Shown here: in pieces, positions 7,353-42,630 of the stretch | How the letters are laid out: each line of letters starts with the position of its first letter | Position numbering within the stretch: position 1 is the stretch's first letter | Source: Actinobacteria bacterium HGW-Actinobacteria-6 | GTDB lineage: Bacteria > Actinomycetota > Coriobacteriia > Anaerosomatales > Anaerosomataceae | Direction of reading: 5' to 3' | Assembly: GCA_002841295.1 (NCBI GenBank) | Contig: PHEU01000015.1 | Span: 1-42,631, forward strand | DNA length: 42,631 nt | The notes under the pieces: model-generated | Told to the model about the DNA's origin: nothing | Seen by the model: the letters and a program-made list of their open reading frames with translations, nothing else | The model's database searches: none | Made by a program: the position numbers and the translations under genes

Positions 7353-7682
7353 ATGGCCGGAGTTGGGCGGGTCGGGAAGGAAGCTCGCAGGTTCGTCAAG
7401 GAGTCGGGCGATCTGGTCGGATTGGCCCGGATCACGGCGGAGATGGTGATCTCGGTGGCCGACGTCGCCGATGCCTGTCGGCGGGATGGGAAGCCTCGGG
7501 AGTCGCTGGCTGCGTTGCGCGAGCTGCGCGAGTTGCTCGCGGATCTGCGTCCGGGAGGTCCTGGCGGTGAGCCTGGCCCAGGTGATGGAGGAGCAGATCC
7601 GGGAGGAGTCGCCGGGGACACCGACGAGCTGGAATCCCTCCTGGGGTCCGGCCCCTCTGTGGGCGACCGAGCGGACGCCTGA
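7353..7682 (+). CDS. Terminase small subunit
   Basis: 109 residues from ATG 7353. The helical part with LVGLARITAEMVISVADVADACRR (in two pieces, residues about 22-45), then RESLAALRELRELLADL, is typical of short actinophage small terminases. The C-terminus is Gly/Asp-rich and probably disordered. It recognises the packaging site and hands DNA to the large subunit. It lies directly upstream of, and overlaps, the large terminase gene by over 100 bp in another frame. Confidence 0.7.
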   Translation: MAGVGRVGKEARRFVKESGDLVGLARITAEMVISVADVADACRRDGKPRESLAALRELRELLADLRPGGPGGEPGPGDGGADPGGVAGDTDELESLLGSGPSVGDRADA

Positions 7683-9129
7683 GCGTCCGACGTACGGCGG
7701 CATCGTCGCGCGGGCTGCGGAGATCCTCGGCCGGCCACTGTTCCCCAGTCAGCGGTACATCGTGGACGTGATGGGCGAGGTGCAGTCCGAGGAGGCTGGC
7801 GATCCTGAGCCGGGCCGGCTGGCGTACGACCAGGGCACAGCGTTCATGCCCCGACGTAGCGGCAAGACCGTGGTGGTGCAGCCGATGGTTGCCAGGACGT
7901 GCGGCGGCAAGGAGAGGCGCCAGGCGTGGACGATGGCCCAGAAGCGGGACAGCGCGGTCCACCGGTGGCGTGATGCCACCGATCAGATCCTGGCCTCGCC
8001 GATGGCGGCTCAGGTGAAGCGGAAGATCTCGATTGCTCACGAGGAGCTCCGCTGGATCAAGACCGGATCGCTCTATCTGCCGGCGGCACCAGACGATGAG
8101 TCGCTGCACGGCGAGGACCCGGATATGGCGATTGTCGATGAGCTGTGGGCGCTGACGCTCGCCGAGCTGGAGGCGATCCAGGACGGGTATCGGCCGGCGT
8201 GGTCGGTGAAGGAAGGCCAGGAGCTGTTGCTGTCCGCGGCGGGGGTGCTGCGGTCGACGGCGTTGAAGCACCAGCGGGTGATCGGGCGTGAAGGTGTCGC
8301 GCGCGGCCGCCGGCTCGGCTCGGCGTTCTTCGAGTGGGCGGTGCCGCCGATGGTCGACGGGGTGCCGGTGCAGGACCTGGAGGATGAGCAGCTGATCGAT
8401 GTGGTGTGGGCGTCACATCCTCGCCGGCACTTCGGGCTCGGTCGGGCGTTCCTGGCCAACGAGCTGACGAAGGGCCGGACGCGGTTCCTGCGGCACTACG
8501 GCGGAATCGATGACGACACCGGGAGCGATTCGGCGATCATCGATCTGGTCCGGATCCACGACGCGGCCGCGGTTGCGGGGATCCCGGAGGATGCGCGGGT
8601 GGCCCTGGCGTTCGAGGTGGATCCCGATGGGCTGCAGGCGTCGATCGCGGCCGGCTACGTGTGGCCCGATGGTGTGGCCCAGGTGGAGGCGGTTGAGGAG
8701 CGGGACGGCACTCGGTGGGCTGGGCCTCGGATCGTGGAAATGGTGGAGGCCGGCGGTGTCGGTCTGGTGGCGTGTGTGAATGCGGGGCCGGCTCGGGATC
8801 TCGCTGACGAGATCGAGCCCAGGTTGCCCGAGGGTGTGACGATGCTGCGGCTTCCGGCCGGTGATTACTCGGCATCGTTCACCCGGTTGAAGACGTCGAT
8901 CGAGGAGCAGCGTCCGCCGGAGCTGGTGCGGGTGCGGATACATGATCCGCGGGGCGAAATGGTGACGGCGGTAACTCGAGCGGGCACGGCGCGGTGGCGT
9001 TCGGGCCCGGTGCCGGTGAAGCGTGGCGCGGAGCCGATCGCGATGCTGCCGGCGTTCTCGGTGGCGTTGTGGGCTGCAGACAAGATTCCGGCGCCGCCGA
9101 AGCCGCGGCCGCCGTTCCGGATCGGTTGA
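7567..9129 (+). CDS. Terminase large subunit
   Basis: 520 residues from GTG 7567 (GGGAGG just upstream); an in-frame start at 7471 lies within the small-subunit gene and is less likely. Walker A-type MPRRSGKT (residues 94-101) and Walker B DMAIVDELW (from 186) define the packaging ATPase. The C-terminal half, including ALAFEVDPDG and later acidic residues, is the RNase H-like nuclease that cuts concatemers. The length is usual for the family. Protein motor at the portal vertex. Confidence 0.92.
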   Translation: MSLAQVMEEQIREESPGTPTSWNPSWGPAPLWATERTPERPTYGGIVARAAEILGRPLFPSQRYIVDVMGEVQSEEAGDPEPGRLAYDQGTAFMPRRSGKTVVVQPMVARTCGGKERRQAWTMAQKRDSAVHRWRDATDQILASPMAAQVKRKISIAHEELRWIKTGSLYLPAAPDDESLHGEDPDMAIVDELWALTLAELEAIQDGYRPAWSVKEGQELLLSAAGVLRSTALKHQRVIGREGVARGRRLGSAFFEWAVPPMVDGVPVQDLEDEQLIDVVWASHPRRHFGLGRAFLANELTKGRTRFLRHYGGIDDDTGSDSAIIDLVRIHDAAAVAGIPEDARVALAFEVDPDGLQASIAAGYVWPDGVAQVEAVEERDGTRWAGPRIVEMVEAGGVGLVACVNAGPARDLADEIEPRLPEGVTMLRLPAGDYSASFTRLKTSIEEQRPPELVRVRIHDPRGEMVTAVTRAGTARWRSGPVPVKRGAEPIAMLPAFSVALWAADKIPAPPKPRPPFRIG

Positions 9130-9143
9130 GGGAAGGGGTTGCG

Positions 9144-10301
9144 GTGACGGTGGCGATTCAGCCGTGGAGCGAGATCGTGTGGCCCGATATGTGGGCGAAC
9201 GCGCGGCTCACGGCGACGAGGGTGAAGGGCATCCCGGCGATCGGTCGGGGGCTCGCGCTGATTGGCGGTCTGGCCAAGCAGATGCCGTTGGACGACTTGC
9301 GCGGTGATGTGGTGTTACCGCGGCCGGGGTTGTTGGAGCAGCCGGATCCGGATCAGGCGCGGTCGTGGTTCGTCGACGTGCAGATCGAGGACTACCTGGT
9401 GCACGGGAACGCCCTGCATCTGGTGACGTCTCGGGGTGCGTTCGGTCAGCCGTTGTCGGCGGTGTGGTTGCCGGCGGCGTGGACGACGTGCACCAGGATG
9501 CCGGATGGCCAGCTTGACTACTGGTGTGCGGGTGTTCGCCTGAACACCGAGGACGTGGTGCACGTTCGTCGCGGTGCGCATCCGCTGGCCCCGTGGGTCG
9601 GTGTCGGGATGGTGGAGCAGTTCCTGGACTCGCTCGGCGTCATGGTCGACCAGTCGACCTACGAGTCGCGGATCCTGAAGGGGTCGGCGGTTCCCTCGGT
9701 GGTGATCGTGGCTCCGCATGATGACCTTGGCCAGGAGGAGATCGACGCAGCTCAGACCGCTTGGTTGAACAAGTACGGCGGACCTAATCGGGTGCCGGCG
9801 GTACTGCCGAAGGGCACCGAGGTGAGGCCATTGGCGTGGTCGCCGTCCGACTCGCAGCTGGTCGAGGCCCGGCAGCTCGGCTTGGTCGACGCCGCGAACA
9901 TGATGAACATCGACGCCTATTGGGTGGGCGCTCAGTCGACCGGCTACAACTACAAGTCGCCCGGCCCGATGTACCTCAACCTGGTCCGCCAGACGGTGAG
10001 CCCGATCCTGGAGGACTTCGAGGGCGTGTGGTCGATGAAGTGGCTACCGCGTGGCCGGCGGGTGCGGTTCGCGCGGAACGTGGTGATGACCGACGACATG
10101 CAGACCACTGCGGGTTGGGTGGCCTCGCTCCTGAAGAACAAGATCATCACCTTGTCCGAGGCTCGGGTCTACCTCGGCCTGGGTGCCGAGGTGCCCGACG
10201 AACTCAAGCCGAAGCCGGTACCGGATGCGCTGCAGCCGGGCGCCGGTGGTCAAGATCCAGCGGCGCCGGCCGCGGGCAATCCAGAGGAGGTACCGGCATG
10301 A
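9144..10301 (+). CDS. HK97-type portal protein
   Basis: 385 residues from GTG 9144 with GGAAGGGG upstream. The pattern IPAIGRGLALIGGLAKQMPL, then EDYLVHGNALHLV, ESRILKGSAVPSVVIV and DAYWVGAQSTGYNYKS, is that of siphovirus portals. It ends with a Pro/Ala-rich tail. It forms the dodecameric DNA channel at one capsid vertex and docks the terminase. The next gene overlaps by 4 bp (ATGA). Confidence 0.9.
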   Translation: MTVAIQPWSEIVWPDMWANARLTATRVKGIPAIGRGLALIGGLAKQMPLDDLRGDVVLPRPGLLEQPDPDQARSWFVDVQIEDYLVHGNALHLVTSRGAFGQPLSAVWLPAAWTTCTRMPDGQLDYWCAGVRLNTEDVVHVRRGAHPLAPWVGVGMVEQFLDSLGVMVDQSTYESRILKGSAVPSVVIVAPHDDLGQEEIDAAQTAWLNKYGGPNRVPAVLPKGTEVRPLAWSPSDSQLVEARQLGLVDAANMMNIDAYWVGAQSTGYNYKSPGPMYLNLVRQTVSPILEDFEGVWSMKWLPRGRRVRFARNVVMTDDMQTTAGWVASLLKNKIITLSEARVYLGLGAEVPDELKPKPVPDALQPGAGGQDPAAPAAGNPEEVPA

Positions 10302-11445: not shown

Positions 11446-12759
11446 ATGAATCCCGTCCTTGCCTCACTGCTGGCGCAGCGCGCAGAGCAGACCACGTACG
11501 CCGACCAGCTCCTGAGCCGTATCTCGGAAGAGAACCGCGACATGGTGGACGCTGAGCGGTCCAACCTCAATGCCACCCGCGAGCGCATCGCGCAGCTGGA
11601 TGAGCAGATCAGCGACCTGGAGGCCTTCGAGGCCACCCGCGCCGCCCACCAGGAGAGCTCCGCGACCGCGCTGGCCAACGTCCGTGCGACCCACGGCGGC
11701 AGCACCCCGCCCGCCGGCGGCCAGTCGCTCGGCGTCACCGCCCGCGACCGCGCCGTCGAGTACCGCAGCCCTGGCCACTTCGTGGTCGACTACCTGCGGG
11801 CCCGCGGCGATGAGAGCCAGAACCGGCTACCCGACGCTGACGCCGCTCAGCGGGTCGCGTCCGCGCTCGGCCGCGCAGCCAACGACGTTCCCGCCGGCAA
11901 CCTGGTCACCACCGCCGACCACGCCGGGCTGCTGCCCGAGCCGATCATCGGCGCCATCCTGACCCAGCTCGACGGCAGCCGCCCGTTCCTGTCCTCGATC
12001 GGGATCAAGCCGCTGGACGTCGTTCCCGGTAAGACCTTCGAGCGGCCCAAGGTTGTGCAGTCGACCAGCGTCGCAGAGCAGACCGCCGAGCTCGGCGAAC
12101 TGACCTTCGGTGACTTCAAGGTCGACGGCGTTTCGTTCACCAAGAAGGTTTTCGGCGGCGCGCTGCGCGTGTCCCGGCAGGACATCGACTGGACCAGCCC
12201 GGCCGCGTGGAACGCGCTGATCGAGGATCTCCAGTTCGAGTACGCCGAGGAGACTGAGGACATCGTGGCGGCCGCGTTCGCCACCGGCGTCACTCAGTCG
12301 CAGGAGATCGCCGCGGCCGACGTCGAGAAGCTCCCGGCGTGGATCAAGGCGCTGTACCTGGCGGCCACCAAGGCGGCCACCGCGGGCGGCACCAAGCGGG
12401 CTCGCGCTCGCCGGCTGCCGAACATCATCTGGACGTCCATCGACATGTGGGCCCAGCTCGGCGCGGTGATCGACGCGGTCCGCGCCGAGAACAACAGCCA
12501 GATCTCCGCCGGCACCTCCTCGGTGATGAACTTCATGGGCTCGATCCTGGACGCCCCGCGCGTCATGGTTCCCGGCTTCGAGTCCGGCACCATGATCGTC
12601 GGCCGCAAGGAGCAGTTCGAGTTCTACGAGGAGCGGATCGGCCTGCTGTCCGCGATCACCCCGGTGAACCTGGGTGTCCAGGTCGCCTATGGCGGCTATG
12701 GCGCCTGGGGCAACATGGACGCCACCGCGTTCTCCAAGGTCGAGATCGCCGCGGCCTGA
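11446..12759 (+). CDS. HK97-fold major capsid protein
   Basis: 437 residues. Residues about 1-80 are a coiled-coil scaffold-like delta domain (RISEENRDMVDAERSNLNA, ERIAQLDEQISDLEAF). The mature HK97 fold follows from about residue 100, including LLPEPIIGAILTQLDGSRPF, IGIKPLDVVPGKTFERPKV and a C-terminal beta-rich end with VPGFESGTMIVGRKEQFEFY. The upstream protease would remove the delta domain. The length is normal. Confidence 0.92.
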   Translation: MNPVLASLLAQRAEQTTYADQLLSRISEENRDMVDAERSNLNATRERIAQLDEQISDLEAFEATRAAHQESSATALANVRATHGGSTPPAGGQSLGVTARDRAVEYRSPGHFVVDYLRARGDESQNRLPDADAAQRVASALGRAANDVPAGNLVTTADHAGLLPEPIIGAILTQLDGSRPFLSSIGIKPLDVVPGKTFERPKVVQSTSVAEQTAELGELTFGDFKVDGVSFTKKVFGGALRVSRQDIDWTSPAAWNALIEDLQFEYAEETEDIVAAAFATGVTQSQEIAAADVEKLPAWIKALYLAATKAATAGGTKRARARRLPNIIWTSIDMWAQLGAVIDAVRAENNSQISAGTSSVMNFMGSILDAPRVMVPGFESGTMIVGRKEQFEFYEERIGLLSAITPVNLGVQVAYGGYGAWGNMDATAFSKVEIAAA

Positions 12760-14406: not shown

Positions 14407-14853
14407 GTGGAACCAATCGCGAGAATCGATGACCTGCCGGGCATGCTCAAGCGGCTGTCGGCGTTGCCGAAGACCGCCCAGGCCGAGATCCGGGCCCAGG
14501 CGCAGGCGATCGCCGATGAGGAAGCCGTGAAGATTCGTACCGCGGCGGTCGGTTCCAGCGCTCAGGCCGCCGCGGTCGCTCCGTTCATCAAGGCCCGCCG
14601 GGATCGGGTCCCGGCGATCGTCGCGGGCGGCCCGGCGAAGGCGAAGGTCTCCGGTGGCGCTACCCGTGGAGAGATCTTCTTTGGTGCCGAGTTCGGTGGC
14701 CAGGCCCGTAAGACCACGATGCAGTTCCGTCCCCACAAGGGCCGTGAGGGCTATTTCTTCTATCCGCAGCTGCGGCAGGACTCCGACCGGATGGTCGAGC
14801 GGTGGCTGGGTGTGGTTCGTGCAGTAGAGCGTGAGTGGAGTCAGCATGGCTAG
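14407..14853 (+). CDS. HK97 gp10-like minor structural protein
   Basis: 148 residues from GTG 14407 with AAGGGG upstream. The helical N-terminus (LPGMLKRLSALPKTAQAEI, QAQAIADEEAVKIRTAAV) and the segment REGYFFYPQLRQDSDRMVERW resemble gp10/neck-type proteins. In most siphoviruses this gene sits among the head-tail connectors; here it lies between the tail chaperones and the tape measure, which is odd. It may be a tail-tip completion protein instead. Confidence 0.6.
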   Translation: MEPIARIDDLPGMLKRLSALPKTAQAEIRAQAQAIADEEAVKIRTAAVGSSAQAAAVAPFIKARRDRVPAIVAGGPAKAKVSGGATRGEIFFGAEFGGQARKTTMQFRPHKGREGYFFYPQLRQDSDRMVERWLGVVRAVEREWSQHG

Positions 14854-16960
14854 CGGTGGGGCGTCGGCTGCTGTTCGGCAGCTGGTGGTGAAGTTCGTGG
14901 GCCTGGTCGACCCGACGCTGGGTAAGGCTGCGGCCACCGTGAACTCCAAGATCAAGGGCAGCGGTACTGAAGCTGGGAAGACCGCTGCGAAGACGGCCGC
15001 GATCGCTGCGGCCGCGGTGGCGGTGGCTGGCGCCGCGGTAAAGATGGGCAAGGACTCGGTCGCCGCTTTCCAGGGGGCCGCCGGCGAGGTGATCCCGTTC
15101 AAGCGGAACCTGGGCCTCACCGCCGAAGAGGCGTCGCGGCTCCGGTTCCAGCTGAAGATGAGCGGCGTCGACCTCGGTGTGGCGGGGAAGGCTGCGACGA
15201 TCTTCGCCAAGAACCTCCAGAACTGGCTCCAGAAGGACGAGGCGCTCAAAGCGACCACCGAGGCCAAGACGAAGGCGATCAAAGCCCAGATCGCGGCGCT
15301 GGAGGCGGCTGGTCCGTCGACGGCCGGCTACACCGAGAAGATGGCGGCGCTGAAGGCGAAGCTCGCCGCGGTGACCGCGCAGGGTGAGGCCAACGAGAAC
15401 GCGCTGACCAAGCTGGGTATCGCCTACTCCGACGCGGAGGGCAATGCCCGGCCGATGTCGCAGCTACTCCCGGAGATCGCTGAGAAGTTCAAGACGATGC
15501 CTGACGGGCCGGAGAAGACGGCGCTGGCTATGAAGTTGTTCGGGAAGAGCGGTGCGGCGATGCTGCCGTTCCTGAACAAGGGTGCGGCCGGGCTGGCCGA
15601 GCTGGCGGCCAAGAGCGACAAGTTCGGGGAGACGCTGACCGGTGAGAACCTCGCGGCGCTGGTGGCGTCGAAGGTGGCCCAGCGGGATTGGAACGCTGCG
15701 GTCGAGGGTTTCCAGATCCAGTTCGGAGCGAAGCTCTTGCCCCTGCTCACGACAGGTGCGACCACGATCACCGGTGTTCTGATCCCGGCGCTGAACGGGG
15801 CGGCGGCGTTCTTCCGGGATAACCAGACGGCGATCGGTACGACCGCAACTGTGGTCGGCGTGCTCACGGTCGCCTATGGCGCGTTGGTGGTGGTCCAGAA
15901 CGCTCAGGCTGCTGGCGGATTCGTGAAGTACTTGCTCACGGTCGGCCAGGCGACGAAGGCGTGGGCGATCGTCCAGGGCGTGCTCAACGTGGTCATGTCG
16001 GCCAACCCGATCGCGCTGGTGGTGATCGCGATCGCCGCCCTGGTCGCCGGGATCATCTACGCGTACAACAACTGCAAGGAGTTCCGGCAGGTCGTAGATG
16101 TGACGTTCAAGGCGATCGCGGATGCCGGGGTGTGGTTGTGGAACAACGCGCTGCAGCCGGCCCTGAAGGGCATCGTGATGGGCTTCGGGTGGGTAATGGA
16201 CGGGCTTGCCGCGTTCCTCGACGGGCTGGGGAATATCCCCGGCTTCGAGTGGGCGAAGGGTGCCGCGGCCAGCGTGCGCGATGTCGGCAAGGCCGCTCGG
16301 GATGCTGCGGACGGGATCAACCAGATCCCGATCAAGAAGAAGGTCACGGTCTCGGCTGCTGATGAGGCGTCGGCGAAGCTCGCCAACGTGAAGTCTCAGC
16401 TGGCCGAGCTGAAAGACAAGCTGATCCGGGCCAAGGCTGAGGGCGACACGGCCGAGGTCGACAAGCTGAAGAAGAAGATCGATGACCTGAAAGACAAGAA
16501 GGTCAAGCTGCAGGCCGAGGTGGAGAAGGGCACGGTGATCTCCAAGGTCAAGATCGTGGCCGGGAAGGGCAACGGAGCGGCCAAGTTCCAGATGATCGCG
16601 ATGGCCGGCGGTGGCATCCTCGGTGGCGCTGAGCGTCATGTGGCGCAGATCGCGAAGGCCGGCGCGATGAGGCTATGGGCGGAGCCCGAGACCGGTGGCG
16701 AGGGCTACGTACCGCTGGCGGCGTCCAAGCGGTCGACGTCGGTACCGGTCTGGTGGGAGATCGGCCGCCGGTTGGGTGTGGTCCAGTACGCCAACGGTGG
16801 CGTTTCTGGTGGCCAGGCGCAGCCGGCGAGCGTGTCCGAGCTGGTCGCCGCGATCCAGGCGCTGGGGTTGCTGATCACCGCGGCTCAGGAGCGGTTGGTG
16901 AACGAAACTCTCCGAGCTGCCAGCTCTGGTTCCCCGCGGCCGATTGTGAGGTTGGGCTGA
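14846..16960 (+). CDS. Tape measure protein
   Basis: 704 residues from ATG 14846, overlapping the previous stop. Ala/Lys-rich helices in the first third (RFQLKMSGVDLGVAGKAATI; several Ala-rich runs) and two hydrophobic stretches near residues 335-400 (TVVGVLTVAYGALVVV; ANPIALVVIAIAALVAGI) are typical. A coiled coil follows around residues 500-560 (KSQLAELKDKLIRAKAEG, KLKKKIDDLKDKKVKLQ). The length sets the tail length; about 0.15 nm per residue suggests a tail near 105 nm. Confidence 0.92.
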   Translation: MASGGASAAVRQLVVKFVGLVDPTLGKAAATVNSKIKGSGTEAGKTAAKTAAIAAAAVAVAGAAVKMGKDSVAAFQGAAGEVIPFKRNLGLTAEEASRLRFQLKMSGVDLGVAGKAATIFAKNLQNWLQKDEALKATTEAKTKAIKAQIAALEAAGPSTAGYTEKMAALKAKLAAVTAQGEANENALTKLGIAYSDAEGNARPMSQLLPEIAEKFKTMPDGPEKTALAMKLFGKSGAAMLPFLNKGAAGLAELAAKSDKFGETLTGENLAALVASKVAQRDWNAAVEGFQIQFGAKLLPLLTTGATTITGVLIPALNGAAAFFRDNQTAIGTTATVVGVLTVAYGALVVVQNAQAAGGFVKYLLTVGQATKAWAIVQGVLNVVMSANPIALVVIAIAALVAGIIYAYNNCKEFRQVVDVTFKAIADAGVWLWNNALQPALKGIVMGFGWVMDGLAAFLDGLGNIPGFEWAKGAAASVRDVGKAARDAADGINQIPIKKKVTVSAADEASAKLANVKSQLAELKDKLIRAKAEGDTAEVDKLKKKIDDLKDKKVKLQAEVEKGTVISKVKIVAGKGNGAAKFQMIAMAGGGILGGAERHVAQIAKAGAMRLWAEPETGGEGYVPLAASKRSTSVPVWWEIGRRLGVVQYANGGVSGGQAQPASVSELVAAIQALGLLITAAQERLVNETLRAASSGSPRPIVRLG

Positions 16961-22063: not shown

Positions 22064-22885
22064 TCATGCTGCAGCGTTGACCGCGGCTCTCAGCGCTTCG
22101 TCTGGGATCTCCACGTAGATCTGAGTGGTCGCGACCGACGCGTGGCCGAGCACCTCCTGGACGGCACGGATATCGCCGGTGCGGGAGTACGCCGTGGTAG
22201 CCCAGCGGTGCCGCAGGGTGTGCCCGGTCCAGTGAGCCGGCAGCGCTCGGGAGAGAAGTACTCCGACGTGACCAGCTGATAGGTGTCCGTCGACTTGGCC
22301 GGGGAATGCCCAGCCACGCGGGAGCGACCGGAGCCGAGCAGCAATGTCGTCGGCCAAGGGAATGATCCGATCCCGGCGGCCCTTTCCATGAACCACCAGT
22401 GACCAGCCGGCCAAATCCTCGATCAGGTCGTCGCTGTGCACAACCGCGATTTCTCCCCGGCGGAGCGCTTCACGGTATCCGAGAAGAATCATGAGCTGAG
22501 TCCGGGAATCGGAGGTGGCTAGAGCCATCTGAATGGCGCCTTCGGGAGCGGGGTAACGGACTCGCTTTCGGGACGATCTGATGCGCGCCAGGAGGCGGGA
22601 GGGGTCGGTGGCGGTGAGGCCGGATGCGTAGGCCCAGCCGTAGAAGCTGCGGAGCGCGGAGAGCTGCGATCGCCGGGTCTCTGTGGACCAATCTGGGCGG
22701 GCGAGCCAGTTGGTCAGGTGGGTGGCCGTTACGGCGAGCAGATCGGGGTGGTGTTCTGCGAATCGGCGCATCTGGTAGGTGCGGAGCCGGATCGTTTGGG
22801 GTGATAGGTCGGAGGCTATTAGCCAGTTTCTCCATGCGGTGAGTGGGTTCATGGCTGAACGGTTTAGAGCAATGACGTTGGTCAT
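22064..22885 (-). CDS. int: Tyrosine-type phage integrase
   Basis: 273 residues. A SAM-like core-binding domain fills the first 100 residues (TIRLRTYQMRRFAEHHPDLL; LSALRSFYGWAYASGL). The catalytic domain has R142 (EALRRGEI), K168 (HGKGRRDR), H222 and R225 (HTLRHRWAT), H248 (LGHAS) and the nucleophile Y257 (TTQIYVEI). All six conserved residues are present, so it is likely active. It sits at the prophage end beside attR and inserts into tRNA-Asn. It is transcribed towards the late genes from the attR side. Confidence 0.95.
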   Translation of the reverse strand: MTNVIALNRSAMNPLTAWRNWLIASDLSPQTIRLRTYQMRRFAEHHPDLLAVTATHLTNWLARPDWSTETRRSQLSALRSFYGWAYASGLTATDPSRLLARIRSSRKRVRYPAPEGAIQMALATSDSRTQLMILLGYREALRRGEIAVVHSDDLIEDLAGWSLVVHGKGRRDRIIPLADDIAARLRSLPRGWAFPGQVDGHLSAGHVGVLLSRALPAHWTGHTLRHRWATTAYSRTGDIRAVQEVLGHASVATTQIYVEIPDEALRAAVNAAA

Positions 22886-26213: not shown

Positions 26214-27449
26214 GTGAGCACCCCCCGTAGCGAGCGTCTCGAGACGAACCGCCCCCAGCGCCATCGGCGCCAGCCGCTGCCCCGGCGCACCCAGTTGCTC
26301 ACCATCGGCGTGATCGCGCTGATCGTCGCCCTGACCGGTGGCGTGGCCTGGGTCTACTCCCTGGTGCCCGGCCAGCGAACCTGCCCGGTCAGCACTGCCG
26401 CCGCGATCGTGCCCGACAGCGGCGTGCTGTTCGGCGTGAATCTGGATTGGCAGACCGAGAACCTGACCCAGTACGGCGACTCGCTCAGGCATCCGCCGGC
26501 GGTCGCCACCCAGTTCTCCGACCTTCCCTACGATGCCCAGCACTGGGATTGGATCGCCTCGGCTGCCGTTCAGGCCCGCTCGGCCAACAGTGTGCTGTTG
26601 CTCACTCTTGAACCGAACGAGGGACTGGCTGCGGTCACCGACGAGGTGGTGTCGCGCCTGGTGACCGATCTGCGCGGACTCAACGATCAGGGCGTTCCGA
26701 TCGTGCTGCGGTTCGCCCACGAGATGAACGGCACCTGGTACGCCTGGAGCCAGCAGCCGACCGCCTACATCGCGACCTTCCGGAAGGTGTCCGCGGCCGT
26801 CCATCAGGGCGCCCCGGGGACGGCGATGATGTGGGCGCCGAATTACGGCGGCGGCTATCCCTTCGCGGGTGGCGCCTACCTGGCCAAGCCAGGAACAAAG
26901 AACTTCGCCATCCTGGACACCAACCACGACGGAGTCTTGTCGATGGCCGATGATCCCTACCTTCCCTACTACCCCGGCGACGACGCGGTCGATTGGGTCG
27001 GGATGTCGGTGTACCACTGGGGAAACAAGCACCCGTGGGGCGCGAATGCCATCCCCGAAGACGGCAAGTTCGCCGCGATGCTCACCGGCACCTACTCCGG
27101 GTCGATCGGCAACGAGACCGCCGTCCCGGACTTCTACGCGATCTTCGCCGAACAGCACCATCGCCCGATGGCGGTCACCGAGACCGCCGCCTTCTACGCA
27201 CCCACCCGCGGCGGGGCCGACGAGCGTGCGATCAAGGAGGCCTGGTGGCGGCAGGTGTTCTCCCCCGAGATGCCCCAACGCTTCCCCATGCTGAAGATGA
27301 TCAACTGGTTCGAGTGGAACAAGTTCGAGGTCGAGGTCGGCGAGCAGGTGGACTGGCGGGCCCTAGGAACCGCAACCACCCGGGACGCCTTCGTAGCCGC
27401 ACTCCCCTCGTGGCTGCACTACGGCGGAACACCGCCGGCCTGCCCCTAG
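26214..27449 (+). CDS. Membrane-anchored GH26-like glycoside hydrolase
   Basis: 411 residues from GTG 26214. The N-terminal basic tail is followed by a membrane segment (about 29-50), then the enzyme domain. GH26 hallmarks are RFAHEMNGTWYAW (acid/base E170) and MAVTETAAFYAP (nucleophile E323). A 13-residue EF-hand-like loop, DTNHDGVLSMADD (235-247), may bind calcium. GH26 enzymes cleave beta-mannans or related beta-glucans, so this one would act on an extracellular polysaccharide, possibly its own capsule. Substrate unknown. Confidence 0.85.
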   Translation: MSTPRSERLETNRPQRHRRQPLPRRTQLLTIGVIALIVALTGGVAWVYSLVPGQRTCPVSTAAAIVPDSGVLFGVNLDWQTENLTQYGDSLRHPPAVATQFSDLPYDAQHWDWIASAAVQARSANSVLLLTLEPNEGLAAVTDEVVSRLVTDLRGLNDQGVPIVLRFAHEMNGTWYAWSQQPTAYIATFRKVSAAVHQGAPGTAMMWAPNYGGGYPFAGGAYLAKPGTKNFAILDTNHDGVLSMADDPYLPYYPGDDAVDWVGMSVYHWGNKHPWGANAIPEDGKFAAMLTGTYSGSIGNETAVPDFYAIFAEQHHRPMAVTETAAFYAPTRGGADERAIKEAWWRQVFSPEMPQRFPMLKMINWFEWNKFEVEVGEQVDWRALGTATTRDAFVAALPSWLHYGGTPPACP

Positions 27450-39547: not shown

Positions 39548-39624
39548 GGGGCGGTAGCTCAGCCGGTCAGAGCAGGGGACTCATAATCCCTGGGTCGCGG
39601 GTTCGAGCCCCGCCCGCCCCACCA
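39548..39624 (+). tRNA. tRNA with CAT anticodon, probably tRNA-Ile2
   Basis: The cloverleaf is complete: acceptor GGGGCGG (39548-39554) pairs with CCGCCCC (39614-39620), T-arm GCGGG-TTCGAGC-CCCGC, anticodon CAT at 39582-39584, discriminator A and encoded CCA (39622-39624). The CAT loop could be Met; the ACTCATAATC core and GGTCGC variable region look more like tRNA-Ile2 (lysidine-modified, reads ATA) than initiator tRNA. Automatic tools may label it Met. Confidence 0.9.
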
Positions 39625-39630
39625 CCTTGC

Positions 39631-39651
39631 TGGTTGAGCCTGTCGAAACCA
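39631..39651 (+). repeat. TGGTTGAGCC...AACCA interspersed repeat
   Basis: A 21-bp sequence with TGGTT/AACCA ends and a GAGCCTGTCGA middle. I recall this quasi-palindrome as a widespread interspersed repeat in actinobacterial genomes. It starts 6 bp after the tRNA, a common place for island edges. Confidence 0.5.
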
Positions 39652-39986
39652 CGCGCCTTCGGTTGACGCTTCCCACTTGGCCTTCGGCTGAGTGGTGACA
39701 GTGTTCCGGTTGATGGGTTACGTCTACTTGGTTGATTGGTGACGCTCCTGAGTGTAGGAGATGAGTCTGGTGGAGCGGCGCAATCAGGCCGTGCTGACCG
39801 TGATTGGCGCCGGGCCAAGCCCGACCCCGGCGCCAGCGCTGCGCACCACTCGCCGACTTCAAGGTCACCACCTCAGTCGCTCGACGGCCTTCGCAGCGCT
39901 CTCCTACTAGTCCACTGCGAAGGACCTGGGTCAAATGAGTGCGGAGAACCTATAGCCCAGAAGCCAAAGACCGATAGTCCCGCAGG
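39652..39986. other. Gene-poor stretch after the tRNA
   Basis: About 335 bp without a supported gene. A 9-bp GC stem-loop with arms 39806-39814 (GGCGCCGGG) and 39826-39834 (CCCGGCGCC) lies within it. The rest has uneven GC and no clear promoter. It may be remnant DNA from integrations at the tRNA. Confidence 0.4.
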
Positions 39987-40631
39987 CTAGTACGCACCTT
40001 CGATTGCATCCACCAGGCGCCACACGCCACTACTGGGGTTATTGTGCGGAAACACAGTTCCGTCCCCCTCATGCTTGCGCTCCAGCAGCATGGCACGCTG
40101 ACGCGCGTCGTCGAAAGCGCCTTCGAAGGGACTCAGCGACGCAATTGTCTTGTCGTACCCAACGATATGGCGCTGCAGGCTTCGGCGAGCGTCGTCGCGA
40201 GACAGGTAGGCAGTTTGTGGTTGGAAGTGGAGTAACAGCCAGAGTTCGAAGGATGGGTTGGAAACTGCCAGTTGCACTCCATTATCACGGGCTTTCTCGC
40301 AAGCCTCACGCAGGAATAGGTGCTCATCAACATCAAAAACACACCAGACGTCGTCGACAAGGTCGTTCGGATCCTTACTTCGGCGGTAAGAACGCTTTGC
40401 CTCAGCCTTAATCTCCACAGCGCGCCTCACGAGACTCCGCGGATCAGTCGCTGGCTCGTCTACAACCTCCACCTCGACCAGGGCGGCCAGACATCTCGGT
40501 CGAAGTAGTGCGATGTAGTGCGGCTCTGTCTTTGCCCCCTCCGCCACCACAACTACCCGCCGCTTAGGATCTTTCGTCCCGACTGGCCGACGCGTAATCG
40601 GACGCGGCGGTCGCCTACTCGTCACGGTCAC
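39987..40631 (-). CDS. RloB/AbiLii-like Toprim-type nuclease
   Basis: 214 residues from GTG 40631 (GTG 40625 is also possible). The Toprim-like core is seen in RRVVVVAEGAKTEPHYIALL (E31), DDVWCVFDVDEH (D100, D102, E103) and VSNPSFELWLLLHF (124-136). These are hallmarks of RloB, the toxin-like partner of AAA15 ATPases in AbiL-type systems. It overlaps the ATPase stop by 17 bp, so the two are translated together. Nuclease activity is presumed from the family. The usual role is phage-triggered cell shutdown. Confidence 0.78.
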   Translation of the reverse strand: MTVTSRRPPRPITRRPVGTKDPKRRVVVVAEGAKTEPHYIALLRPRCLAALVEVEVVDEPATDPRSLVRRAVEIKAEAKRSYRRSKDPNDLVDDVWCVFDVDEHLFLREACEKARDNGVQLAVSNPSFELWLLLHFQPQTAYLSRDDARRSLQRHIVGYDKTIASLSPFEGAFDDARQRAMLLERKHEGDGTVFPHNNPSSGVWRLVDAIEGAY

Positions 40632-41946
40632 GCCCAACCGTCGCAGCGCCGGACACGGAGCCTCGCGCCATACGCGGAGTACCACCATAACGACCCTGAA
40701 GGTAGCCCCTCTGGAGGTCCTCACCCTTGCGAGGCCGATAGTCCGAGAGGGGCGTCAGCGAGCTCCGCGCCTGGTCGTCCTTCTCGGCGAACCAGATCTG
40801 GCCACGCGAAAGCTCTAGGCCATCCTGTGTTCGACCCAGCAGGGTTGCATCGTGAGTGGAGAAGATGAGTTGAGCATGCCGCGCGTTGGTTCGCTTGCTC
40901 TGAAACAGGCCGACAGCCTCCTTGACAAGAAGCGGGTGAAGGCTGAGGTCAAGCTCGTCCACAATGAGCGTGCCTCCAACATCCAGCGCGTCGAGCGCGT
41001 ACACGAGGAACGTCAGCCACGAACGAGTGCCCAGACTCTCTTCCTCAAATGGGAGGGAGGACCCCCCGACACCGCTTCGGTGGATTAGCTCGAGAACCTC
41101 GCCTCGATCCATAAACGAGTCCAGGATCTCCTGAACCTGAGCGGCCTTTTCCGCTGGACCTAGTTCATTCGGCAACGACTTGGAGATCGCGGCCCTCATG
41201 GCGTCGAGCTCGTCAGGGTCGCGTTCTACCTTCTCGATCTTTGCTTCGCGGATACCAAGATCCGCCATCGCCGCGAGCTGCAAGACCTGAACCCTGAGCC
41301 GCTTGAGCCGTTGGATACCCAACTGATCGAAATCGCTTCGGTCATTGGCCTCCAGCACGCTGATACCCCTCTGGAAGAATCGGTAGATCCCGTCAAGCTC
41401 GCGGTTTTTCGCCGTTGCCATGACGGAGAGGAACAGGCTGTTTGGCCGGACGATTTCGGCCACGGCTCGAGCACTACCGCCAACGAGTCGCCGTCCGAAC
41501 TGGAACTCATCGCCATCCCGCTCAAAAACCGTCTGCGGTCGCTTGTGTGGATACGTGAAGAGCCATTCGCCAATGATGCGATCCGCCCCCAGTTCGAAGC
41601 CGTACATGTATCGCTCGCCATTGACTACGAAGTCGAGTTCGAAGAGGCTTGATCGCTCCGCGCTGGTGTCGAACCGGAAGGGGTCGCGCGGTATCCGATC
41701 GAACGGGGACGACTGCGCGGACCGAAGGACAAGAGAACGCATGAAGCCAAGGGCGCGAAGGATGTTTGACTTGCCTGAAGCATTGGCACCAAGGACCGCC
41801 AGCACTGGCAACACGTCTCTGGTTGAACCATCCTCAGCGACCACCACGTCGTGGCCGACACCTTGATCGAGTCGGGTCGCGGACAATGACAGCGACGCTT
41901 CATCCCGGAACGACCTGTAGTTGCACACCCTGAACCCTAGGATCAT
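40615..41946 (-). CDS. AAA15-family ATPase (RloA/AbiLi-like)
   Basis: 443 residues from ATG 41946. Walker A is GANASGKSN (53-61), following the FRVCNYRSFRDEASLSLSA N-terminus of ABC/OLD-type ATPases. A signature-like EEESLGTRSW (301-310), Walker B TLIVDELDLSLHP (326-338) and an FSTHD histidine switch (362-366) follow. These proteins sense infection and control the coupled nuclease. Codons look less GC-biased than the host genes, consistent with recent transfer. First gene of the pair. Confidence 0.85.
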   Translation of the reverse strand: MILGFRVCNYRSFRDEASLSLSATRLDQGVGHDVVVAEDGSTRDVLPVLAVLGANASGKSNILRALGFMRSLVLRSAQSSPFDRIPRDPFRFDTSAERSSLFELDFVVNGERYMYGFELGADRIIGEWLFTYPHKRPQTVFERDGDEFQFGRRLVGGSARAVAEIVRPNSLFLSVMATAKNRELDGIYRFFQRGISVLEANDRSDFDQLGIQRLKRLRVQVLQLAAMADLGIREAKIEKVERDPDELDAMRAAISKSLPNELGPAEKAAQVQEILDSFMDRGEVLELIHRSGVGGSSLPFEEESLGTRSWLTFLVYALDALDVGGTLIVDELDLSLHPLLVKEAVGLFQSKRTNARHAQLIFSTHDATLLGRTQDGLELSRGQIWFAEKDDQARSSLTPLSDYRPRKGEDLQRGYLQGRYGGTPRMARGSVSGAATVGRDRDE

Positions 41947-42183
41947 CGAACCACCTCATTCTGAAGCACGAACGGCCACCACTTGGCATCGTTCGGGCCG
42001 ATCTGTGACAACAGTATGCACGAAACGCCCTGAGTGTCTATCTAGATCCGCCGTTTAGCCACCAGCCGAGTGCTCGCCCACCGACAGCCATTCCGCACTG
42101 AGACTGCTGCCCAACGTGCGACAAGACCCGAGCTGCCACCCTTCACGAAGCTAACGTGCGATAGCGAGTGCGCTCATCGCACC
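41947..42183. other. Upstream region of the AAA15-RloB pair
   Basis: 237 bp without a supported gene. It should contain the minus-strand promoter for the defence pair, but I cannot place one with confidence. GC is lower than average. Confidence 0.35.
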
Positions 42184-42630
42184 TTATGGACGCCGACCAG
42201 CCAACACCCGTCCCACAGCCCGCTGAATCAGGCCGGAGTTGAAGCAGGTGAGCAGGTGACCTTCGACGAATCGGTCAGCCCGAAGCTGGGCCACGATCAC
42301 CATCGCAGCCTCGGCCAGAGTGGCTTTGGTCAGCAACTCTGGGTCGGCGGCCAGAGTCTTGCCCCGGGGCCAGGACATCCCGTCGAAGGGAATCTGCAGG
42401 CCGGCCTGGGTGAAGGCTCGCACCAGCGCCTCAGCTTCGGCCGACAGCGACGGGAATGCCATCCGGGACGTGCCGTCGGCTCGGGCGACCGCGACATTCC
42501 ACTGGCCTGCCGATCCACCGGCCTCGACCGCAGCCAACGCGGCTCGCAGCGAATCCCAGTCGGTCGCCGCCAACGCAGCGAACTGAGCCGCATATGCAGC
42601 CTTGACTTCTCTTACCGAGGTACCTGACAC
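42184..42630 (-). CDS. DUF6508-like protein, may be 5'-incomplete
   Basis: 148 residues visible, with a GTG at 42630 at the very window edge, so the start may lie outside. The pattern WDSLRAALAAVEAGGSAGQW, SRMAFPSLSAEAEALVRAF, QAGLQIPFDGMSW and a helical end (RFVEGHLLTCFNSGLIQRAV) fits my memory of the DUF6508 family of small soluble proteins. No known function. Confidence 0.6.
   Translation of the reverse strand: MSGTSVREVKAAYAAQFAALAATDWDSLRAALAAVEAGGSAGQWNVAVARADGTSRMAFPSLSAEAEALVRAFTQAGLQIPFDGMSWPRGKTLAADPELLTKATLAEAAMVIVAQLRADRFVEGHLLTCFNSGLIQRAVGRVLAGRRP

What the first reader, a model, noticed from the sequence alone, without database searches (positions are those of the whole stretch)
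39987..41946. AAA15 ATPase plus RloB nuclease pair near a tRNA: AbiL/RloAB-type defence system
The two genes overlap by 17 bp. One has every ABC-type ATPase motif, the other a Toprim core with E31, D100, D102 and E103. AbiL (AbiLi/AbiLii) has this pairing, and PARIS (AAA15 plus DUF4435 Toprim) is a relative whose nuclease cuts host tRNA. The pair lies just past a tRNA gene, with different base composition, suggesting an acquired island. Its trigger and target in Actinobacteria are not known to me.
Basis: partly seen in the sequence, partly recalled or inferred. Interest (0 to 1): 0.7.

Follow-up and report, generated by a model that had tools for sequence, protein, structure and literature searches.

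The report
AbiL-type ATPase and nuclease pair
Two adjacent bacterial genes encode a sensor ATPase and a probable metal-dependent nuclease of a widespread phage-defence type called AbiL; it is a good but ordinary new member, probably acquired by an actinobacterium, whose trigger and target are still unknown.

Summary
Window 40615-41946 (-) encodes a 443-aa ABC-type ATPase (PADLOC AbiLi E 8.8e-88). Window 39987-40631 (-) encodes a 214-aa RloB protein (Pfam E 2.3e-35). ATPase motifs are intact. Among 160 loci found through the ATPase alone, RloB follows directly in 145 of the 156 with room, and the two genes' distances correlate (r 0.87, 0 of 2000 permutations). The pair's low GC suggests acquisition. 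Best reading: an abortive-infection module in which the ATPase restrains a Toprim-like nuclease and frees it on a phage signal. It works like PARIS but is not PARIS: the effector is RloB, not DUF4435. Toprim kinship rests on motif register and topology; fold search was inconclusive. A tRNA beside the pair is uncommon in homologous loci but recurs. The contig seems mis-binned in its assembly, so absence from 'relatives' is weak evidence. New member of a known kind.

The parts
40615..41946 (-). AbiLi/RloA-type ABC ATPase, 443 aa (putative sensor/antitoxin)
   Evidence: PADLOC AbiLi E 8.8e-88; Pfam AAA_21 1.4e-34; model pLDDT 90.9, Foldseek top hit OLD nuclease 6p74 E 4.5e-11
41764..41790 (-). 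Walker A, residues G53-N61
   Evidence: G53, N55, G58, K59 invariant in 40 sequences
41026..41040 (-). ABC signature, residues E303-T307
   Evidence: E303, S304, G306, T307 invariant in 40 sequences
40954..40971 (-). Walker B, residues 326-331 ending D330-E331
   Evidence: D330, E331 invariant in 40 sequences
40852..40854 (-). switch histidine H365
   Evidence: at least 90% conserved in 40 sequences
39987..40631 (-). RloB/AbiLii-type Toprim-like nuclease, 214 aa (putative effector)
   Evidence: Pfam RloB E 2.3e-35, residues 27-210; PADLOC AbiLii 5.6e-25; model pLDDT 89.8
40524..40541 (-). first Toprim-like motif E31-G-x-x-T-E36
   Evidence: E31 90%, E36 91% of 145 homologues
40326..40334 (-). 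second Toprim-like motif D100-x-D102
   Evidence: D100 98%; D102 acidic in 97% of 145 homologues
40245..40247 (-). E129 in S-x-P-x-F-E-x-W
   Evidence: acidic in 97% of 145 homologues
40149..40151 (-). K161, candidate catalytic lysine
   Evidence: 90% of 145 homologues; the catalytic role is inferred
39625..42183 (.). low-GC stretch holding the pair (parts at GC 0.59-0.61), probable acquired segment
39548..39624 (+). tRNA gene with anticodon CAT, 362 nt from the end of RloB, its 3' end facing the pair

Best explanation
A two-gene AbiL/RloAB-type abortive-infection module. Shown: an intact OLD/Rad50-like ABC ATPase gene overlapped by an RloB gene with an intact set of conserved acidic residues, a pair that is linked and inherited together across bacteria and phages. 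Inferred: the ATPase assembles as an oligomer that holds RloB inactive; a phage product or phage-induced state changes the ATP-bound ATPase and frees RloB; RloB, a metal-dependent Toprim-like nuclease using E31/E36, D100/D102, E129 and perhaps K161, then cuts a host nucleic acid, most likely RNA (tRNA is the leading guess by analogy with PARIS AriB), stopping translation and phage growth.
For: Families: Pfam RloB and AAA_21/AAA_15, PADLOC AbiLi and AbiLii. Linkage: RloB directly downstream in 145 of 160 loci fetched by the ATPase alone, 145 of the 156 with room. Joint inheritance: Mantel r 0.871 over 122 pairs, 0.749 over 87 non-redundant ones, 0 of 2000 permutations each. Conserved residues. 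Six OLD Toprim domains as a profile aligned with E31 and D100-x-D102 in register, score 23.2 against a best of 19.7 in 200 column shuffles. Mobility: on phages and plasmids. Literature: an RloB (D44):AAA (D29) pair of Clostridium algidicarnis is shown as validated by toxicity neutralisation (PMC10440598, passages, section 11 and figure legend); Fusobacterium AbiLii was toxic in E. coli (PMC3985639, passages); AriB is a two-metal Toprim tRNase held by AriA (PMC12409363 and PMC11455837, passages).
Against: Nothing here shows activity. In PMC3985639 lactococcal AbiLii was not toxic in E. coli and F. nucleatum AbiLi did not neutralise its AbiLii, so simple antitoxicity by the ATPase is not general. 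In PMC10440598 the one AAA pair screened against coliphages (with another toxin) gave no protection, and AlphaFold gave no convincing ATPase-toxin interface. Foldseek found no PDB match to the RloB model at E <= 0.001, and the VIA match to the PARIS complex is weak (Z 4.9, 136 aligned, 4.7 A). 11 of the 156 loci with room lack RloB, among them L062, the window ATPase's neighbour in the tree.
Confidence: 0.8

Rival explanations
1. The pair is a PARIS (AriA-AriB) system.
For: Same two-gene plan; the ATPase also matches PADLOC AriA (E 1.4e-33); weak structural match of RloB to the PARIS complex chain 8ux9_A.
Against: AbiLi scores far better (8.8e-88); RloB matches no DUF4435 or AriB model at E <= 0.1; one DUF4435 protein gave no profile signal (score 14.0; 62 of 200 shuffles as high).
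Confidence: 0.04
2. RloB is a DNase: the pair acts like a split OLD or Gabija nuclease that degrades phage or host DNA.
For: The ATPase's best Foldseek match is the OLD nuclease 6p74; the RloB motifs align with OLD Toprim domains. OLD and GajA cut DNA (PMC10568477, passages; PMC8136825, search listing with start of abstract).
Against: A tested Toprim effector encoded apart from its ATPase, AriB, cuts tRNA (PMC12409363, passages). Substrate cannot be read from sequence.
Confidence: 0.25
3. A stress-response or plasmid/prophage-maintenance toxin-antitoxin pair without a real role in phage defence.
For: Presence on plasmids and prophages; the published RloB:AAA pair was scored by toxicity neutralisation, not phage challenge, in what I read.
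Against: AbiL itself is described as a phage abortive-infection system (title of Deng 1999, cited; not read).
Confidence: 0.12
4. A decayed or inactive remnant.
For: Short non-coding stretches on both sides and a change of composition at its edges.
Against: Both frames are open and the conserved residues are present.
Confidence: 0.05

Closest known systems
AbiL (AbiLi-AbiLii) / RloA-RloB, PADLOC AbiL
   Same: Both components match their models, same gene order, overlapping genes, conserved acidic residues
   Different: Window ATPase at most about 42% identical to the homologues compared and 23% to that of Lactococcus phage proPhi7; activity untested
PARIS (AriA-AriB)
   Same: ABC ATPase plus separate Toprim-like effector
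OLD nucleases and Gabija GajA
   Same: ABC ATPase fold and E...D-x-D Toprim motifs (OLD only)
   Different: There ATPase and Toprim are in one protein; here in two genes
Septu / retron PtuA-PtuB
   Same: PtuA ATPase is similar in fold (Z 17.9)
   Different: PtuB is an HNH nuclease (PMC10440598 passages)

Membership tests
AbiL / RloAB | First gene matches the AbiLi ATPase family | tested here: met
   PADLOC AbiLi E 8.8e-88
AbiL / RloAB | Second gene matches AbiLii/RloB | tested here: met
   Pfam RloB 123 bits, cut-off 31.5; PADLOC AbiLii 5.6e-25
AbiL / RloAB | Two genes, ATPase first, adjacent or overlapping, same strand | tested here: met
   same in 145 of 160 homologous loci
AbiL / RloAB | ATPase motifs and family-conserved effector residues intact | tested here: met
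AbiL / RloAB | Abortive infection on phage challenge | not testable with these tools
   Needs experiment
PARIS | AriB effector of the DUF4435 family | tested here: not met
   No DUF4435 or AriB match at E <= 0.1; no profile signal with one DUF4435 protein
PARIS | Triggered by Ocr-like phage proteins; cuts tRNA-Lys | not testable with these tools
   Needs experiment
Toprim superfamily | Conserved E after strand 1 and D-x-D after a later strand | tested here: met
   E31 follows strand 24-30, D100 ends strand 94-100; conservation; register with OLD. The motif definition is recalled
Toprim superfamily | Structural match to a solved Toprim protein | tested here: inconclusive
   No Foldseek match at E <= 0.001; PARIS complex Z 4.9

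The most novel reading that the evidence does not exclude
RloB is a separate Toprim RNase class with a site of its own (E31/E36, D100/D102, E129, K161), and the actinobacterial clade that holds this pair has its own RNA target and phage trigger, distinct from PARIS.
Probability: 0.2. Interest if true: 0.55.

Novelty: new member of a known kind. Interest (0 to 1): 0.28.

Why it matters
RloB-ATPase pairs occur in many phyla, yet no credible solved relative of RloB was found by sequence, and the passages I read name neither its target nor its trigger (paper searches; open-licence PMC papers only; figures are not held, so the metabolic-labelling panel for one RloB in PMC10440598 was not seen). This member gives an intact pair and a corrected list of residues to mutate, so the question whether RloB is a tRNase like AriB or a DNase like OLD can be tested directly.

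Tried and rejected
PARIS membership: rejected. tRNA-targeted island: no repeat of the tRNA region of 14 bases or more within the window (the only 13-base match is at 27262, other strand); the contig ends at 42631, so a distant att site cannot be excluded. tRNA adjacency as a general family feature: not borne out, but not excluded for some members. Of 80 genome loci 8 have a tRNA in the stretch held (5 of 56; 3 of 24, L116, L126 and L135; many stretches are cut by contig ends); only L116 has one within 1 kb, 401 nt past RloB with its 3' end facing the pair as in the window. Of the four pairs, L003 has a tRNA-Sec 115 nt past RloB. The 80 viral loci were not scanned for tRNAs. An earlier count said 6; the call shows 5.

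Empty-site comparison: not achieved. The gene beside the tRNA (P0003) has no match at E <= 1e-30 in 10 genus or family genomes, its best match G838 ends at a contig edge, and only one genome of that genus is held. P0004 was found in 1 of 11 genomes, the window's own.

Solved relatives of RloB by sequence: none for the single protein at E <= 1; the profile search listed 60 of 131 matches, designed proteins, myosin light chains and calmodulins at E 0.018 or worse, judged chance. Fold search of RloB: top rows are generic Rossmann-like folds (lumazine synthase and others, Z up to 7.9); PARIS chain 8ux9_A ranks 46th of 50. Other Toprim entries are not among the 50 rows, which excludes nothing.

Neighbour survey: 148 ORFs, drawn from 205 candidates in 69 of 80 genome loci, were scanned; among the 25 families listed of 249 (PADLOC) only type I specificity models (3 members) and two MADS models (3 each) appear, and among 25 of 184 Pfam families none has more than 4 members, so no strong defence-island signal. 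The 11 loci without RloB show no obvious substitute effector by eye. Relatives of an OLD and a DUF4435 protein were sought in viral contigs to deepen the controls: none, so the OLD profile rests on 6 sequences and the DUF4435 test on 1.

Full report
What is there. On the - strand, 40615-41946 encodes a 443-aa protein and 39987-40631 a 214-aa protein whose start lies inside the end of the first. The overlap is 17 bp with GTG 40631 and 11 bp with GTG 40625; 98 of 145 homologues have their first residue in the column of the latter, by longest-ORF starts. A tRNA with anticodon CAT lies at 39548-39624 on the + strand, 362 nt away. The pair has GC 0.596, while the lowest of all 1960-bp windows in 1-39624 is 0.642.

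Family. Pfam gives RloB at E 2.3e-35 for the smaller protein and AAA_21 (1.4e-34) and AAA_15 (3.2e-9) for the larger. PADLOC gives AbiLii 5.6e-25 and AbiLi 8.8e-88; AriA follows at 1.4e-33. NCBIfam has no model over its cut-off. The filing as AbiL/RloAB is therefore firm at the level of sequence.

The pair as a unit. All 160 have the ATPase ORF. An RloB ORF follows directly on the same strand in 137 (65 genome, 72 viral), and in 8 more whose longest ORF starts further upstream, so 145 of 160; 4 loci end too soon; 11 lack it. Of the 137 spacings, by longest-ORF starts, 108 lie between -20 and +10 bases, median -1. Distances within the two families correlate at r = 0.871 over 122 pairs (window included; incomplete or oddly sized members left out) and 0.749 over 87 non-redundant ones, with 0 of 2000 permutations as high. 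Shared descent contributes to this, so it shows long joint inheritance rather than contact. In the 61 genomes nearest the assembly, the ATPase and RloB occur in the same 4 genomes (own, G007, G032 twice, G058), side by side.

Residues. Over 145 homologues: E31 90%, E36 91%, D100 98%, D102 D/E 97%, S124 92%, E129 D/E 97%, H135 96%, K161 90%, P199 91%; E103 16%. The likely site is therefore E31/E36, D100/D102, E129 and perhaps K161; E103 should be dropped. The role of K161 is my inference, partly from recalled OLD work.

Structure. The RloB model (60-sequence alignment) has mean pLDDT 89.8; strand 24-30 ends at E31 and strand 94-100 at D100, a beta-alpha order that fits Toprim. Foldseek against the PDB found nothing at E <= 0.001; the VIA second look gave generic Rossmann-like folds up to Z 7.9 and the PARIS complex chain 8ux9_A at Z 4.9, 4.7 A over 136 residues, the longest alignment of the 50 rows but 46th in rank. 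An HHalign comparison with six OLD-type Toprim domains put E31 and D100-x-D102 in register with the OLD E and D-x-D; probability only 3%, E 0.014, but score 23.2 against a best of 19.7 in 200 column shuffles and 14.0 for the reversed profile. A single DUF4435 protein gave no signal. I hold Toprim kinship to be likely, not proven here; PMC10440598 reports the same from HHPred (passages). The ATPase model (pLDDT 90.9) matches the OLD nuclease 6p74 first in Foldseek (E 4.5e-11), then Rad50, SMC, PtuA and GajA, and Rad50 at Z 21 and PtuA at Z 17.9 by VIA.

Where it comes from. The window is contig C53 of an assembly of 69 contigs. In a leave-one-out comparison of ten readable sampled contigs of that assembly, 8 have tetranucleotide profiles correlating 0.92-0.95 with the rest; the exceptions are C10 (short, 0.69) and C52 (0.77), while three window chunks give 0.74-0.78 (first seen). 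P0003, beside the tRNA, has no match at E <= 1e-30 in 10 genus or family genomes; its best matches lie outside the assembly's class, 51% in G271 and 54% in G838. The contig is most likely mis-binned. It is probably actinobacterial: the ATPase falls in a set of 10 rows, the other 9 all Actinomycetota (support 99/95), and the capsid of the neighbouring prophage matches only Mycobacterium phages (34 records, best listed about 28%). Hence absence from the assembly's congeners says little.

Mobility and the tRNA. A tRNA next to the pair is uncommon but recurs: 8 of 80 genome loci have a tRNA in the stretch held, one within 1 kb (L116, 401 nt past RloB, 3' end facing the pair as in the window), and L003 has a tRNA-Sec 115 nt past RloB in the other orientation. 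No att repeat was seen. tRNA-site integration therefore stays possible for this copy, unproven.

How it most likely works. By analogy with PARIS, whose ATPase AriA sequesters AriB until a phage protein releases it to cut tRNA (PMC11455837 and PMC12409363, passages), I propose that this ATPase restrains RloB and that infection frees it to cut a host nucleic acid, probably RNA. Support from RloB itself: a Clostridium algidicarnis RloB (D44):AAA (D29) pair is shown as validated by toxicity neutralisation (PMC10440598, section 11 and figure legend; the figure itself is not held), and Fusobacterium AbiLii inhibits growth of E. coli (PMC3985639, passages). Against: in the latter study AbiLi did not neutralise AbiLii, and lactococcal AbiLii was not toxic; in the former, the one AAA pair screened against coliphages, with a different toxin, gave no protection. 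Trigger and substrate are unknown.

Verdict. Interest is modest and lies in RloB's untested chemistry.

Noticed in passing
window 1-22885: A prophage cut by the contig start: terminase (7471-9129), portal (8994-10301), major capsid (11446-12759), tape measure (14831-16960) and a tyrosine integrase (22064-22885 -); the capsid matches only Mycobacterium phages, at about 28%.
   Followed up: partly
whole window (contig C53): The contig's composition and gene content differ from most other sampled contigs of its assembly, so it is probably mis-binned.
   Followed up: yes
window 42184-42630: A DUF6508 gene at the contig end, possibly cut; no match at E <= 1e-5 in 10 genus and family genomes.
   Followed up: no
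window 39634 and L218 1-100: The 14-base repeat TTGAGCCTGTCGAA lies just past the tRNA, and also beside the P0003 homologue in G838.
   Followed up: no
L062: The window ATPase's neighbour in the tree (support 92/60) has no RloB next to it; 10 other loci with room also lack one.
   Followed up: partly
L003 612-708 and L116 2770-2854: Two other pairs have a tRNA gene just past RloB: tRNA-Sec at 115 nt and tRNA-Leu at 401 nt.
   Followed up: partly
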